Assembly: GCF_000770795.1 (NCBI RefSeq)
Contig: NZ_JRKJ01000004.1
Coordinates: forward strand, 1 to 64,000
Length of the DNA: 64,000 nucleotides
From: Lysobacter dokdonensis DS-58
GTDB taxonomy: Bacteria; Pseudomonadota; Gammaproteobacteria; Xanthomonadales; Xanthomonadaceae
Reading direction: 5' to 3'
This document shows positions 21,340 through 26,808 of this stretch, in pieces. The notes under the pieces were generated by a model. The model searched no databases. It worked only from the letters and a program-made list of their open reading frames with translations, and was not told the origin of the DNA. Position 1 is the stretch's first letter. Each line of letters starts with the position of its first letter. Made by a program: the position numbers and the translations under genes.

Positions 21340-23286
21340 TCACGCCACCCCGGCAGGCGCCTCCATGGCCGCCAGCATGCCGGCGATGCGGGCGAGCAGC
21401 GCCTGTGCATCGTACGGCTTGGTCATCATGTCCATGCCCTGGCTGAGGAATTGGCGCAGCTCGAGCGAATGCGGCGTGTAGCCGGTGATGAACAACACCG
21501 GCAGCGCGGGGCGGGCGATGCGGGCGGCGCGCGCGAGTTCGCGGCCGTCCATGCCGGGGAGGCCGACGTCGGTGAGCAGCAGGTCGATGCGCTCGTCCGA
21601 GCGCAACAAGGTGAGCGCGCGTTCGACATCCGGCGCCTGCAGGCAGCGATAACCGGACAGCGACAGCAAGGTCGCGGTGAGCTCGCGCACCGAGTCGGCA
21701 TCCTCGACGATGAGGATGCGTTGACCGTCGCCGGAGACGGGCGCGCTCGCCGATGCCGTGCCGCTCGCATGCTCGACGTGCGCCGCATCGCCGACGGGCA
21801 GCAGCAACGAAATCGTCGTGCCCACGCCCGGCGTGCTCGCGATGCGCACATCCCCGCCGCTCTGGCGCGCGAACCCGTAGGTCATCGACAGGCCCAGGCC
21901 CGTGCCCTGCCCCAGCGGCTTGGTGGTGAAGAACGGCTCGAAGACTTTCTGCAACACGTCTTCTGGAATGCCGGTGCCGTCATCCTGCACGAAGACTTCG
22001 ACGAACTCCGGCGCGTCGTCGGGCACGCGCGTGCCGATGCGGATGGTGCCGCCGCCGGGCAGCGCATCGCGTGCGTTCACGACGAGGTTGAGGATCGTGT
22101 TCTCGAGTTGTCCCGCGTCGACGCGGGCGATCGCCGCATCGGCATCGAGCGTGATGTCCAGCGCGATGCGCTCGCCGATGGTCCGCCGCAGCAGTTCTTC
22201 CAGCGACGTGATGCGCGCATTGATGTCCACCGTGCGCGCATCCAGCGGTTGCCGGCGCGCGAACGCGAGCAGCCGGTGCGTGAGCGAGGCGGCGCGGCGC
22301 GCAGCGTCCAGCGCAGTGTCGGCGTATTGGCGCACGGCTTGCGTGCGGCCTTCCGCCGCTTCATCCGTGAGCAGCCCGAGCGAGGTGATGATGCTGGTCA
22401 ACAGGTTGTTGAAGTCGTGCGCGATGCCGCCGGTGAGCTGGCCGAGCGCATCCATCTTCTGCGATTGCACCAGCGCTTCCTCGGTGGCCGCGCGCGCCGA
22501 GATCGCTTCGGCCAGCTGCGAACGCGCCGATTGCAGGCGTTCGTTCTGCTGCCGCTCGCGCACGCGGTGCCGGGTGACGTCCTCGACGAACACGAGGCCC
22601 TGGCCGTTGCCGTAAGGGACGACGCGCCATTCCAGTTCGCGCACCGAATCGCCCGCCACCGTCGCGAGTGCGCCGTGCCAGCGTTCGCCGCGCTGCACGT
22701 GTTCGCGCAATTGCGCGAGCGCCACGTCCTGCCCGGGCGCCAGGCGCGACGCAAGATGTTCGTCGCCCCCATGCAGGGCATCGAAGGCGGCGTTGCGCTC
22801 GTGCACGCGCAGGGCGGCGTCCACCACGGCGATGGGTGCTGCGACGTTCTGCAGGATGTCCCGCTGCCGCTGCTCGCTCGTGCGCAGGGCGTCTTCGGCG
22901 TTGCGTACGCGCAGCAGCGCGCGCAAGGTCGCGACCAGCACGCCCGGGTCGACGGGATGGATCAGGTACGAGTCCGCGCCGCTCTCCAGGCCCGCGATCA
23001 TGTCCTTCGTGTGGATGGACGCGGCGGTGACGTGCACGATCGGTAGCAGCCGATGGCTGTCTTCTTCGCGCAGGCGGCGGGCGAGATCGAAGCCGGTCAT
23101 GTCGGGCAGGTTGACGTCGAGCACGAGTACGTCGACGCGCGCGGTGCGAAGCGCGGCCAGGCCGTCCTCGCCCGTCGCCGCTTCCAGCACGCGCCATTGC
23201 TGGCGCTCCACCACGCGGCGCATCGCGTAGCGCGTCGCGGCGTTGTCGTCGACGATGAGGATCGTCGGCATCGGGGCCTCAACCAT
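21340..23286 (-). CDS. Hybrid histidine kinase, REC-PAS-like-HisKA-HATPase-REC
   Basis: This 648-residue protein is the last gene of the stressosome operon. REC1 (about 6-125) has phospho-acceptor Asp57, but the conserved Lys is replaced by His (YLIHPVD, H110). A PAS-like region (about 140-240) and coiled coil follow. HisKA has His290 in [13 protein letters not shown]. HATPase carries [17 protein letters not shown] and [14 protein letters not shown]2 (about 530-645) has [12 protein letters not shown] and TKPYD intact. No transmembrane helix is seen, so it is cytosolic. The ATG at 23286 has a GGAG ribosome-binding site and overlaps the upstream gene by 8 bp. An ATG at 23271 is an alternative start. 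Confidence 0.9.
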
Positions 23287-24157
23287 CGGCGTTCTCCGTC
23301 GGCGCATCGGCTTCGAGCCGCAGCGGCAAGCACACCCAGAATTCCGAACCGGCGCCGACTTCGCTGCGCATGCCCACCGTACCGCCAAGCAACTCGGCGA
23401 AGCGCTTGCACAAGGACAGCCCCAAGCCGGTGCCGCGCACGCGGCGCTGCTGCGGCCCGTCGACCTGCGCGAAGTCCTGGAACAACTGCGCCTGCATGTC
23501 CTGCGGGATGCCGATGCCGGTATCGGTGACGCTGAAGCGCGCCCATTTGTCGTCGACGCATACCGCGCCAACGCGCACGTGGCCCTTCGGGGTGAATTTC
23601 AGCGCGTTGGAAATGTAGTTGCGCAGGATCTGCGCGACCTTCTTGTCGTCGGTGTACATCGCGGGCATGCCGACGGGTTCCTCGAATACGAGATCCACGC
23701 CCGCTTCTTCGACGATCGGCCGGAACATGCCGCGCAACGCGGAGAACAGGTCGACCATCTCGAACCAGCCGGGCGAAATCGTCACGCGCCCGGCCTCGAT
23801 CTTCGCCAGATCGAGTAGATCGTCGACCATGTCGGCGAGCTCGCGCGCAGCCGTGCTGATGAACTGCACCTGCTGGTGTTGCTCACCACTGAGCGGGCCA
23901 TCGAGCTCGTCGTGGAGCAGGCGCGTCATGCTGAGGATGGACCCCAGCGGCGTGCGGAACTCGTGGCTCATGTACGACAGGAAACGGCTCTTGAGCTCGG
24001 AGGCTTCGCGCAGTTGTTCGGCCTGCGTGTCGAGTTCGGCGTAGAGCGCGAGCACGCCCTGGTTGGTCTCGTCGAGTTCCGCGCGCAGGCTCGCGTTCTC
24101 CACGCGCAGGCGCTCGGTTTCGATCCTGTCGTCCATCGGCGTTTCCACGTGCGTCAT
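23279..24157 (-). CDS. Cytosolic histidine kinase with coiled-coil N-terminus
   Basis: This 292-residue kinase starts with a coiled coil (about 15-58), then HisKA with His65 in FLSYMSHEFRTPLGS, then HATPase with the N-box NYISNALKF, DTGIGIP and GTGLGLSLCKR. It has no membrane segment and no sensor domain of its own, so input probably comes from protein contact, for example with the upstream RsbT or phosphatase. It starts within the stop of the SpoIIE gene (ATGA overlap) and its own stop overlaps the hybrid kinase, whose REC domains are the obvious phosphoryl acceptors. Confidence 0.9.
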   Translation of the reverse strand: MTHVETPMDDRIETERLRVENASLRAELDETNQGVLALYAELDTQAEQLREASELKSRFLSYMSHEFRTPLGSILSMTRLLHDELDGPLSGEQHQQVQFISTAARELADMVDDLLDLAKIEAGRVTISPGWFEMVDLFSALRGMFRPIVEEAGVDLVFEEPVGMPAMYTDDKKVAQILRNYISNALKFTPKGHVRVGAVCVDDKWARFSVTDTGIGIPQDMQAQLFQDFAQVDGPQQRRVRGTGLGLSLCKRFAELLGGTVGMRSEVGAGSEFWVCLPLRLEADAPTENADG

Positions 24158-25167
24158 CGGCGGTCTCCGAGGGCCAGCGCGAGGACGGTGGCGTCGTCGC
24201 GGCCGCGGTCGAAATCGCGCAGCAGCACGGCGGCGACCACCGCCGGATGCCGCAGGGCCAGGCCCGGGTAATCGGACAGGCTCCAGCGCGTCTGCAACCC
24301 ATCGCTGTGGAGGATGAGCAGCTTGCCGCCCGCGTCGGGGAAGTCGAACGCGCGTGCACCGCGATACTGCGCGCCGACGATGCCCGGGTGGGAGGCGAGC
24401 CCGCGCGAGCCTTCCAGCGAATGCAGCGCGGCGGAAATGTTGCCGATGCCGGCGAAGCGCAGGTTGCGCGGGCCATCGTCGAACTTCGCGACCGCCACCG
24501 CGCCGCCGCGCGTGCCCGACATCGCCGAATGCAGTTGATCCATCGAAGACACCGGATCTCCCGCATGGTCTTCGACGAACCCGCGGATCGCCGCCACGGC
24601 AGCGTCATGCGCGGCGATGCCATGGCCGAGGCCATCGACGACCATCGCGATGCGGGACGCGCCGTTGTACGACACGGCCCATCCATCGCCGCACACCGGC
24701 TCGCCGCCGTAGGCGCGCTGGCTCGCGCCATAACGCAGGTCGCGTTGCGCACGCTGGCGCGGATGCAGGCGCGCCATCACCACGGCGCCGCGAGCGTCGG
24801 CGAACATGTCGACCACCTGGGCCTGCCGCGTCACCGCGCCCAGGCCGATGCCCTGCGTGCCCGTCGTGGACATGCCGTCGTGCAGGCACGCGGTGAAATC
24901 GAAGCCGGGCCCCTGGTCGACCGCGATCAGCTCGATGCCGCGGCCGCCGTCGTTCGTGATCGCCTGGATCTGCAACTCGCCGCGTTGCGCATGCTTGAGG
25001 ATGTTCGTCGACAACTCGGTGGCGACCAGTGCGACACGGCCGGTGTCGTCATGGTCGAAGCCGATGTCGTGCGCGATCTGCGTCGCGAGCCGGCGCGCCT
25101 GCCCGACGCGCGAGGCATCGTCGATGGGCACGGCGTGCACCATGCCGCCGGCGTGCAGGGCCTGCAT
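24154..25167 (-). CDS. RsbW/T-like ATPase fused to SpoIIE-type PP2C phosphatase
   Basis: This 337-residue protein has an anti-sigma-like ATP-binding domain (about 15-135; ELSTNILKHA at 51-60, DQGPG at 84-88, GIGLG at 107-110) followed by a PP2C-family domain (about 145-335) with metal-site motifs VCGDGW (Asp161), VVDGLGHG (Asp178) and HSDGLQ. It corresponds to RsbX, the phosphatase that resets phosphorylated RsbR and RsbS, with an added kinase-like domain. The start ATG at 25167 shares a base with the RsbT stop (TGATG). Confidence 0.88.
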   Translation of the reverse strand: MQALHAGGMVHAVPIDDASRVGQARRLATQIAHDIGFDHDDTGRVALVATELSTNILKHAQRGELQIQAITNDGGRGIELIAVDQGPGFDFTACLHDGMSTTGTQGIGLGAVTRQAQVVDMFADARGAVVMARLHPRQRAQRDLRYGASQRAYGGEPVCGDGWAVSYNGASRIAMVVDGLGHGIAAHDAAVAAIRGFVEDHAGDPVSSMDQLHSAMSGTRGGAVAVAKFDDGPRNLRFAGIGNISAALHSLEGSRGLASHPGIVGAQYRGARAFDFPDAGGKLLILHSDGLQTRWSLSDYPGLALRHPAVVAAVLLRDFDRGRDDATVLALALGDRR

Positions 25168-25586
25168 CAGGCCCACTTCACCAACGTGATGCGCGTGCCG
25201 CGGCCCGCCGCCGTGTCGATGTCGAATTCGTCGACCAGGCGCTTCGCGCCGGACAGCCCGAGGCCGAGCCCGTTGCCCGAGGTCCAGCCATCCGACATCG
25301 CCAGCTTCAGGTCGGGGATGCCCGGGCCCTCGTCGCGGAACAGCAGGCGCAGTCCCTTGCGCACGCCCTTCTCGACCACCGACCAATCCATGTGCCCGCC
25401 GCCGCCGTAGATCACGGTGTTGCGCGCCAGTTCGCTGGCCGCGGTGATCAACTTGGTCTGGTCGACCAGGCGCATGCCGCATTGCGTGGCGAGCTTGCGC
25501 ACGGTCTGGCGCGCGACGACGACGTCCTGTTCGACCTGCACCGCCTGGGTACCGCTGTCGAGGGTGCCGCCTGCGAAGGAGGTCAT
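25167..25586 (-). CDS. rsbT: RsbT-like serine/threonine kinase of the stressosome
   Basis: This 139-residue single-domain GHKL kinase has an N-box ELARNTVIYGGGG (53-65), a G1 box DEGPGIPD (85-92) and a G2 box NGLGLGLSGAKRL (105-117). The family phosphorylates RsbS and RsbR when stress is sensed, then leaves the complex to activate a downstream partner. Here the coupled ATPase-phosphatase and kinase are candidate partners. It begins inside the RsbS stop (ATGA overlap). Confidence 0.9.
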   Translation of the reverse strand: MTSFAGGTLDSGTQAVQVEQDVVVARQTVRKLATQCGMRLVDQTKLITAASELARNTVIYGGGGHMDWSVVEKGVRKGLRLLFRDEGPGIPDLKLAMSDGWTSGNGLGLGLSGAKRLVDEFDIDTAAGRGTRITLVKWA

Positions 25587-25945
25587 GCGGCGCTCATTTT
25601 CTTGCGCAGCCGCGCCATGCCGCGCTCGGCGTCGAGCGCGGTGGTCACGCCGGGCAGCGAGAGCCCGAGTTCCACCAACGTGATCGCCACCGCCGGCTGC
25701 ATGCCGACGAGCACCGTCTCGGCATCCATGATGCGCGCCACGCCGGCGATGGTGCTGATCATGCGGCCGATGAACGAGTCGACGATCTCCAGTGCGGAGA
25801 TGTCGATCATCACGCCCTTGGCGCTGGTCTTGCGGATCCGCTCGGCCAGGTCGTCCTGCAGCGTCAGCGCGAGCTGGTCGTGCATGTCGACCTGGATGGT
25901 GACGAGCAGGAACTCGCCCATGCGCAGGATGGGGATGCGTTCCAT
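25583..25945 (-). CDS. rsbS: RsbS-like STAS scaffold protein
   Basis: This 120-residue protein is a single STAS domain. The DISALEIVDSFIGR segment carries Ser57 at the place where RsbS is phosphorylated by RsbT (Ser59 in Bacillus subtilis, aligned from memory). RsbS and RsbR together form the stressosome core, and RsbS holds RsbT inactive. It begins 2 nt after the rsbR stop. Confidence 0.9.
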   Translation of the reverse strand: MERIPILRMGEFLLVTIQVDMHDQLALTLQDDLAERIRKTSAKGVMIDISALEIVDSFIGRMISTIAGVARIMDAETVLVGMQPAVAITLVELGLSLPGVTTALDAERGMARLRKKMSAA

Positions 25946-25947
25946 GC

Positions 25948-26808
25948 TCAGGCCTCGGCCTTCGACACGCGGAAGTCCAGGCGGCGCATCGCCAGCGCGA
26001 GCGCATCGGCGAGGTTGGCCTTGGTGACGATGCCCTGCAGATCCAGGCCCAGGTGGACGATGGTCTGCGCGATCTGCGGACGCACGCCGCTGATGATCGC
26101 GTCGGCGCCCATCAGGCGGATCGCGGTGACGGTCTTGAGCAGGTGCTGCGCGACCAGCGTGTCGACGGTCGGCACGCCGGTGATGTCGATGATGGCGATC
26201 TCCGCGCCCGTTTCGACGATGCGCTCCAGCAACGATTCCATCACGACTTGCGTACGCGCCGAATCCAGCGTGCCGATCATCGGCAGCGCCAGCACGCCTT
26301 CCCACAGCTTCACCACCGGCGTGGAGAGTTCGAGCAGGTCTTCCTGCTGGCGCACGATGACTTCCTCGCGCGACTTCTGGAACGTGCGGATGGTGTGCAT
26401 GCCAAGCGCGTCGAGCATCTCCGACACGAGCCACAGCTGGTTCGCGAGTTCCTTCGGGTCGTCGGCGTACTCGCGCTGCAGTTCCTCGAACAGCGCGCGC
26501 TTGAGCGAGAAGATGAAGCCGGCGGTGCTCTGCGAATCGAAGCCCTGCAGTGCGCGAGTGCGCGAGAGGTTCTCGAGGAAGCCGCGCGTGTCGGCCCACT
26601 CGCGCTCTTCGAGGTTCGCCGAATCGGCGGTCGACGAAGCGGCGACCAGCAGGCGCAGGAAATCGCGCGACTGGTTGTTGATCTCTTCGGGCGAGATGCG
26701 CGCGTCGCGCATCGCGCCGATGTCTTCGAGATTGCGGGTCCAACGGGTGAGCAGAGACGATTCGTTCTTGCGCACCGCATCCACGGTACGCGCGTGCAGG
26801 ACGGCCAT
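25948..26808 (-). CDS. rsbR: RsbR-like stressosome sensor, helical N-domain plus STAS
   Basis: This 286-residue protein has a helical N-terminal sensor region (about 10-150; NESSLLTRWTRNL and REWADTRGFLENL segments resemble RsbRD_N) and a C-terminal STAS domain (about 160-280). The phospho-site region MIGTLDSART and DITGVPTVDTLVA place Ser183 and Thr217 34 residues apart, matching the spacing of Thr171 and Thr205 in B. subtilis RsbRA. It is the first gene of the six-gene operon. The start at 26808 has an AGGGGA ribosome-binding site; an upstream in-frame start lacks similarity. The sensed signal is unknown, and no heme or flavin motif is evident. Confidence 0.9.
   Translation of the reverse strand: MAVLHARTVDAVRKNESSLLTRWTRNLEDIGAMRDARISPEEINNQSRDFLRLLVAASSTADSANLEEREWADTRGFLENLSRTRALQGFDSQSTAGFIFSLKRALFEELQREYADDPKELANQLWLVSEMLDALGMHTIRTFQKSREEVIVRQQEDLLELSTPVVKLWEGVLALPMIGTLDSARTQVVMESLLERIVETGAEIAIIDITGVPTVDTLVAQHLLKTVTAIRLMGADAIISGVRPQIAQTIVHLGLDLQGIVTKANLADALALAMRRLDFRVSKAEA

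What the first reader, a model, noticed from the sequence alone, without database searches (positions are those of the whole stretch)
21340..26808. Six-gene stressosome operon ending in two kinases and double receivers
RsbR, RsbS and RsbT homologs with phospho-site residues in place are translationally chained to an RsbX-like phosphatase, a soluble histidine kinase and a REC-kinase-REC hybrid. In Bacillus the output is sigma-B; gammaproteobacteria lack it. The gene order suggests that freed RsbT or the phosphatase feeds a phosphorelay. The final output (DNA-binding protein or cyclic-di-GMP enzyme) is not in this operon, so the pathway end is unknown. Vibrio-type Rsb modules with a two-component system are the nearest precedent known to me.
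Basis: partly seen in the sequence, partly recalled or inferred. Interest (0 to 1): 0.72.

Follow-up and report, generated by a model that had tools for sequence, protein, structure and literature searches.

The report
Stressosome wired to two histidine kinases
This is a widespread six-gene stress-sensing operon in which a stressosome, a large protein cage that senses stress, appears to control a sensorless histidine kinase through a short helix so far seen only in such operons; that suggests a testable answer to how such cages talk to two-component systems when no sigma-B is present.

Summary
At 26808-21340 (minus strand) six tightly packed genes encode RsbR, RsbS, RsbT, an RsbX-type phosphatase, a soluble histidine kinase (HK) and a REC-HK-REC hybrid, with RsbR Ser183/Thr217, RsbS Ser57 and HK His65 in place. 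Corrections: the phosphatase carries a second RsbT-like kinase domain, and the operon is common: 109 loci (mostly Pseudomonas; also Lysobacter, Luteibacter, Dyella, Stutzerimonas, unnamed relatives) keep the order, while flanks change. The genome has no other STAS protein, no RsbU_N domain and no SigB above cut-off, so the switch looks self-contained. New here: the HK has no sensor domain, only a helix with the motif TNxGVxALYxEL. It occurs in 109/109 of these HKs and in 14 operons where an RsbT-like domain is fused directly in front of it (12 exact, two variants); it was absent from the 12 next-best kinases sampled and from five RsbU_N-type operons. Best reading: freed RsbT grips this helix, much as RsbT grips the RsbU linker in Bacillus, and switches a two-kinase phosphorelay whose final output stays unknown. 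Stressosome membership is firm by sequence; RsbT-helix docking is inferred. Verdict: a new variant of a known kind.

The parts
25948..26808 (-). rsbR: sensor/scaffold, globin-like N-terminal domain (Pfam RsbRD_N) + STAS; phospho-sites Ser183 and Thr217
   Evidence: AlphaFold model matched to 3zta Z 15.0 and 2bnl Z 13.4
25583..25945 (-). rsbS: STAS scaffold, phospho-site Ser57
25167..25586 (-). rsbT: GHKL serine/threonine switch kinase, overlaps rsbS by 4 nt
24154..25167 (-). RsbT2-RsbX fusion: N-terminal RsbT/RsbW-like HATPase (about residues 18-131) + PP2C phosphatase (about 144-331)
23279..24157 (-). soluble histidine kinase without sensor domain: predicted helix 7-82 with the coil motif and His65, then HATPase_c
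24032..24067 (-). codons of the coil motif TNQGVLALYAEL (HK residues 31-42), proposed RsbT docking helix
   Evidence: coordinates counted from the HK start
21340..23286 (-). hybrid kinase REC1-(PAS)-HisKA-HATPase_c-REC2; REC1 has His where the conserved Lys usually is

Best explanation
A Gram-negative stressosome whose direct client is a histidine kinase. RsbR and RsbS form the cage and hold RsbT. A signal sensed by the globin-like RsbR domain makes RsbT phosphorylate RsbR/RsbS and leave. Free RsbT then docks on the N-terminal coiled helix (motif TNxGVxALYxEL) of the sensorless HK and sets its activity, the counterpart of RsbT gripping the RsbU linker in Bacillus. The HK phosphorylates REC1 of the hybrid, whose own kinase passes phosphate to REC2 and from there to an unlinked partner. 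The RsbT2-RsbX fusion resets the cage; with no other STAS match in the genome its likely substrates are RsbS and RsbR. Shown here by sequence: the parts, their residues, gene order, self-containment, the motif and its restriction to such operons in the sets tested. Inferred: every binding and phosphotransfer step, the cage itself included. Unknown: final output and signal.
For: Parts and residues. Six-gene order in 109 loci (hybrid gene in 108, one contig ends before it), flanks changing between genera in the 106 loci tabulated. HK orthologue in 29 genomes, all among the 31 of 299 order genomes with RsbS and in none of the other 268; scores fall from 284 to 190 bits. Motif in 109/109 HKs of the operon; of 1812 genes called in the surveyed loci 94 carry it, and the only one whose motif does not match a six-gene-type HK is the L125 stressosome HK. 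A 48-residue coil query without the catalytic region hit 24 of 72,556 plasmid records, all 24 in an Rsb operon. Natural fusions of an RsbT-like domain immediately before the same coil in 14 loci, 8 of them found with an HK query and not with Rsb scaffold proteins; where both score, the fused domain scores higher against RsbT than against the RsbX N-domain. In L229, L232 and L235 the coil leads into a different transmitter type, so coil and RsbT-like domain travel together. Relatives with RsbU_N on the HK (5 of 5) lack the motif. No RsbU_N or SigB above cut-off in the genome. One continuous predicted helix 7-82 carries motif and His65. RsbT acts on a coiled-coil linker in Bacillus (PMC12143880, passages).
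Against: No binding or phosphotransfer was measured. [quoted passage not shown] The RsbX N-domain could be the HK partner instead. In three fused lineages (Nonomuraea, Embleya, Caballeronia) the RsbT-like domain has lost the N-box Asn (read by eye), so it may be a structural rather than a switching part. The fused domain might bind the cage rather than the coil. Two of the 14 fused loci depart from the motif (L232, L238). Only monomer models were possible. The output is unidentified.
Confidence: 0.55

Rival explanations
1. RsbT controls the HK by phosphorylating it transiently rather than by docking on the coil.
For: Heinz 2022 proposes this for downstream kinases without RsbU_N and gives the failed interaction test as consistent with it (passages).
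Against: Does not explain why an RsbT-like domain is repeatedly fused directly before the coil, nor why the N-box Asn was lost in three fused lineages (by eye).
Confidence: 0.15
2. The RsbT-like domain of the RsbX fusion, not RsbT, is the HK partner, so the phosphatase carries the signal.
For: The fusion gene is directly upstream of the HK gene and overlaps it in 107 of 109 loci (starts chosen by my script).
Against: In the loci where both score above 40 bits, the fused HK domain scores about twice as high against RsbT as against the RsbX N-domain: 87 v 44 (L230), 89 v 45 (L231), 87 v 43 (L233). RsbX-N groups with separate RsbT2 genes (support only 58-72), which occur with RsbU_N-type HKs.
Confidence: 0.17
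3. The kinases belong to an unrelated pathway and share only transcription with the stressosome.
For: No output gene and no measured link.
Against: HK orthologue never found without RsbS in 299 genomes; overlapping genes in over 100 loci across several genera; fusions.
Confidence: 0.04

Closest known systems
Gram-negative rsbRSTX stressosome modules with two-component genes (Heinz 2022, PMC9237108; passages only)
   Same: R-S-T-X order, no sigma-B cascade, followed by HK/REC proteins
   Different: Their survey covers globin-coupled RsbR with a single-domain RsbX; here RsbR has an RsbRD_N domain without a haem-holding His, RsbX is fused to a second kinase domain, and the HK carries a coil seen only in such operons
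Vibrio vulnificus stressosome with VvD1/VvD2 (PMC10014275, passages)
   Same: RSTX plus sensor kinase and regulator
   Different: VvD1/VvD2 are thought to act on cyclic-di-GMP; the window operon encodes no GGDEF, EAL or HD domain
RsbU_N-histidine kinases in stressosome operons (PMC12143880 and PMC9237108, passages; seen here in L126, L127, L129, L130, L131)
   Same: Kinase encoded after RST and RsbX, presumed RsbT client
   Different: The window HK has no RsbU_N (0 of 41 orthologues scanned) but a conserved coil
Bacillus subtilis RsbRST-RsbU (PMC12143880, passages)
   Same: RsbT freed from the cage acts on a coiled-coil linker
   Different: Client there is a PP2C phosphatase feeding RsbV-RsbW-SigB; here a histidine kinase
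HsbR/SypE-type kinase-phosphatase fusions acting on a STAS protein (recalled, no call)
   Same: RsbW-like kinase and PP2C in one protein
   Different: Domain order and partners differ as recalled; not compared here

Membership tests
Stressosome RSTX module | adjacent RsbR, RsbS, RsbT and RsbX-type genes in that order | tested here: met
   RsbX fused to a second kinase domain
Stressosome RSTX module | phosphorylatable residues in RsbR (two) and RsbS (one) STAS domains | tested here: met
   RsbR Ser183, Thr217; RsbS Ser57; identical in at least 98% of 109 sequences each
Stressosome RSTX module | RsbR N-terminal globin-like sensor fold | tested here: met
   model pLDDT 80.3; 3zta Z 15.0 rmsd 2.4 over 139, 2bnl Z 13.4 rmsd 2.7 over 134; helical folds score high in general and other globin-like proteins tie
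Stressosome RSTX module | megadalton RsbR-RsbS-RsbT complex | not testable with these tools
   needs purification and cryo-EM
SigB general stress cascade | RsbU, RsbV, RsbW and SigB homologues in the genome | tested here: not met
   only the operon's two STAS at E 0.001; no RsbU_N at E<=1; no SigBFG over cut-off, best 136 of 234 bits
Vibrio-type O2-sensing stressosome | haem-binding globin RsbR with proximal His | tested here: not met
   residues 1-150 of the window RsbR have His only at 5 and 138 (sequence)
Stressosome with cyclic-di-GMP output | GGDEF/EAL/HD protein in the operon | tested here: not met
   no recurrent downstream gene across genera
RsbU_N-histidine kinase systems | RsbU_N (PF08673) on the kinase | tested here: not met
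   0 of 41 orthologues scanned; 5 of 5 related-type HKs have it
Hybrid-kinase phosphorelay | phospho-accepting His and receiver Asp residues intact | tested here: met
   HK His65; hybrid motif IAHDFNN 107/108 and REC1 LDVNLPD 105/108; REC2 Asp motif 99/104 by pattern and the five others by eye
Hybrid-kinase phosphorelay | phosphotransfer along HK-REC1-HK-REC2 | not testable with these tools
   needs radiolabel or Phos-tag assay

The most novel reading that the evidence does not exclude
The coil TNxGVxALYxEL is a dedicated docking helix for RsbT-family switch proteins, so a whole class of histidine kinases in Pseudomonadota, Deinococcota and Actinomycetota have a stressosome as their only sensor; evolution has wired the link three ways (RsbU_N, fused RsbT-like domain, bare coil).
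Probability: 0.5. Interest if true: 0.72.

Novelty: new variant of a known kind. Interest (0 to 1): 0.56.

Why it matters
How stressosomes signal in bacteria without sigma-B is open: Heinz 2022 notes that for the majority of downstream signalling proteins in its survey, the Vibrio ones included, no RsbU_N was detected, and reports no positive VvRsbT-VvD1 interaction (passages). The signature described here names a 12-residue element to mutate, may predict which kinases are stressosome clients from sequence alone, and offers natural fusions as ready reagents. If true, partner-switching (Ser/Thr) and His-Asp signalling meet at one helix in many Pseudomonas and Lysobacter relatives.

Tried and rejected
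Looked for the output gene. Neighbours (up to three genes before and five after the operon, as far as the stretches reach) in 106 of the 109 loci: no gene recurs across genera after the hybrid. A single-receiver gene lies divergent from rsbR in nine loci, eight genomes (cluster c15), but no clear orthologue showed among the 30 best receiver loci of this genome (36 of the 66 receiver hits were not compared). Sigma-B route rejected. A second SpoIIE-type hit in the genome reads as a housekeeping PP2C (by eye). Promoter and terminator scan gave nothing above chance. The cluster c5 of hybrid kinases near Pseudomonas operons is a mixed set, not one orthologue (by eye). Phage records: 3 RsbS matches, all under 60% identity. 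Literature: nine searches listed no paper whose title or abstract start concerns this coil or an experimental Pseudomonas stressosome; the held library lacks most subscription papers, and the 2005 and 2017 Pane-Farre reviews, known to me only as cited in passages and from recall, were not looked up, so absence from print is not claimed. Papers seen as passages only: PMC9237108, PMC10014275, PMC4976288, PMC12143880, PMC6469090, PMC6848086; others as listings. VIA-align caution: helical matches of Z 12-15 are partly a common arrangement; many globin-like proteins tie.

Limits. The tree has weak support for RsbX-N with RsbT2 (58-72), so that point is likely, not shown. In one search, L061 (decayed operon) and L062 (another type) were left out beforehand; L167, L187 and L180 have short hybrid frames, L201 a short HK frame, L167 a short RsbT, L218 no hybrid; start codons were chosen by my script, so overlap counts depend on it. 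Of the 24 coil-positive plasmid records 15 are Deinococcus radiodurans. The own-genome motif control covered 30 of 66 receiver hits and 8 of 16 HATPase_c_2 hits; the order control covered 12 of 42 second-tier HK matches.
Full report
OBSERVATION. The six open reading frames are present at the stated coordinates and packed head to tail on the minus strand. Phospho-site residues are RsbS Ser57, RsbR Ser183 and Thr217, and HK His65. The first RsbR site is Thr in Listeria and Ser in the Vibrio chain. The proteins look soluble.

The fourth protein is not a plain RsbX: residues 18-131 match HATPase_c_2 (E 4e-11), and residues from about 144 match the PP2C of RsbX and SpoIIE (Pfam SpoIIE 174-331, slightly below its cut-off; RsbX in the PDB at E 2e-12). 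Both halves keep recognisable catalytic motifs across 109 sequences (motif names recalled). In related operons (L126, L127, L129; L128 also shows two frames) the extra kinase is a separate second RsbT gene before the phosphatase, and the RsbX N-domain groups with the L126/L127 RsbT2 proteins in the tree, though weakly (72; 58 for the clade holding all RsbT2), while RsbT groups with their RsbT1 at 99. So the gene is most likely an RsbT2-RsbX fusion.

DISTRIBUTION. In the order, 31 of 299 genomes have RsbS. Of 111 loci (80 named, 31 from the order survey including the window's own genome), 109 were counted; L061 (a decayed operon) and L062 (another type) were set aside. Their gene order is the same (hybrid in 108) and four of the five junctions overlap in nearly all (RsbS-RsbT 109/109, RsbT-RsbX 106/109, RsbX-HK 107/109, HK-hybrid 105/108, starts chosen by my script). 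The 80 are mainly Pseudomonas, with Stutzerimonas, Luteibacter, Dyella, Lysobacter, one unplaced gammaproteobacterium and one contig filed under Eremiobacteraeota. A Xanthomonas vasicola plasmid of 29 kb carries all six genes. Flanks differ from genus to genus and no seventh gene recurs across genera in the 106 loci tabulated: the operon behaves as a self-contained cassette.

SELF-CONTAINMENT. At E 0.001 the whole genome has two STAS matches, both in this operon; RsbU_N gives nothing even at E 1; no SigB/F/G homologue passes the cut-off; HATPase_c_2 passes its cut-off at four places, the operon's two and two others that I take, from the receiver hits next to them, to be histidine kinases; the only other SpoIIE-type hit reads as a housekeeping PP2C (by eye). 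So no STAS substrate other than RsbR and RsbS was found for the RsbT2-RsbX fusion, and no RsbU-like client for RsbT.

THE COIL. The HK has 20-40 residues before the motif TNxGVxALYxEL in 107 of 109 sequences (66 in two) and no sensor domain in Pfam (41 of 41 scanned). AlphaFold gives one helix, residues 7-82, carrying motif and His65 (mean pLDDT 82.8). The motif is present in 109 of 109 HKs of the operon. A 48-residue query without the catalytic region matched 24 of 72,556 plasmid records, and all 24 lie in Rsb operons: 23 by the listed positions (one across the record start) and Nonomuraea by direct reading. Fifteen of these are Deinococcus radiodurans, so ten species-level names stand behind the number.

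FUSIONS. Searching 398 genomes of the phylum with the first 260 residues of the L125 HK (RsbT-like domain, coil, HisKA) gave eight genomes at E 1e-40; all eight hits lie in R-S-T-X operons. With L125, Sphingomonas, Deinococcus, Nonomuraea, Caballeronia and Embleya there are 14 loci in which an RsbT-like domain sits directly before the coil; 12 have the exact motif, L232 has one change and L238 two. In L229, L232 and L235 the same coil leads into a transmitter of the hybrid's type instead. In Nonomuraea, Embleya and Caballeronia the fused domain has lost the N-box Asn (by eye). Five related operons instead put RsbU_N on the HK, and no motif is found in those stretches nor in L062. Two of these (L130, L131) have a gene after the HK that reads as a LuxR-type response regulator (by eye). 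One class of client, three wirings: RsbU_N, fused RsbT-like domain, bare coil.

MECHANISM. In Bacillus, RsbT turns on RsbU by ordering a coiled-coil linker (PMC12143880, passages), and that paper already extends the principle to RsbU_N-HKs. The simplest reading here is that RsbT does the same to the bare coil. HK then phosphorylates REC1 of the hybrid, and REC2 is the exit: its Asp is intact in 104 of 104 sequences of 600 residues or more (99 by pattern, five by eye). REC1 carries His where the conserved Lys usually is in 105 of 108 (the role of that Lys is recalled). The final output is unknown. A single receiver gene divergent from rsbR in nine loci, eight genomes, and another after the hybrid in L231 suggest exit through a stand-alone receiver in some lineages.

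SENSOR. The RsbR N-domain is globin-like: best matches among RsbR proteins are Moorella 3zta Z 15.0 (rmsd 2.4, 139 residues) and Bacillus RsbR 2bnl Z 13.4 (rmsd 2.7, 134); haem globin sensors and other globin-like proteins score 12-14. It has His only at positions 5 and 138 of the first 150, so a Vibrio-like haem is unlikely. The signal is unknown.

PRIOR WORK AND NOVELTY. rsbRSTX with two-component genes is known (PMC9237108, PMC10014275), and the first of these cites phosphorylation of Xanthomonas campestris RsbR (passage). In nine searches of the held library I saw no listing on the coil signature, on the RsbT-like domain fused to HKs, or on the RsbT2-RsbX fusion; full texts were not read through and the 2005 and 2017 reviews were not seen. 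Hence a new variant of a known kind.

RESULTS AGAINST. Heinz 2022 reports no positive VvRsbT-VvD1 interaction. No complex could be modelled. The tree support for RsbT2 is weak. Two fused loci depart from the motif. The survey is not independent sampling: L037 and L185 are probably the same genome, and most named loci are Pseudomonas.

Noticed in passing
window 21193-18441 (-): trpG, trpD and what reads as trpC follow the operon on the same strand, 146 nt from the hybrid stop to the likely trpG start, with no terminator-like site listed between. TrpG/TrpD gave no match in the stretches of the other 30 order loci.
   Followed up: partly
L034:2651-3001 (-) and equivalents: A stand-alone receiver gene lies divergent from rsbR in nine loci of eight genomes (cluster c15); possible phosphorelay exit.
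   Followed up: partly
L170, L171, L176, L177, L204 downstream of the hybrid: In five Pseudomonas loci the operon is followed on the same strand by what reads like a bacteriophytochrome kinase, a receiver and a further receiver protein (identity by eye).
   Followed up: no
L061: One relative (G292) has what looks like a decayed copy of the operon: matches to rsbR, rsbS and HK are partial or split.
   Followed up: no
hybrid REC1, window 22924-23262: REC1 has an almost invariant His (YLxHPxD) at the place of the usual Lys in 105 of 108 hybrids.
   Followed up: partly
L239, L240, L241: RsbT-like domains fused to HKs in Nonomuraea, Caballeronia and Embleya have lost the N-box Asn and look like pseudo-kinases (by eye).
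   Followed up: no
L192 between rsbR and rsbS: About 1.3 kb of extra sequence separates rsbR from rsbS in a Stutzerimonas genome; not examined.
   Followed up: no
L227 (pXVH29): The complete six-gene operon sits on a 29-kb Xanthomonas vasicola plasmid.
   Followed up: partly
L230 (Deinococcus radiodurans MP1): R-S-T-(kinase-PP2C)-(RsbT-like-HK)-HK operon DR_RS15570 to DR_RS15595 with transposase and partition genes nearby.
   Followed up: partly
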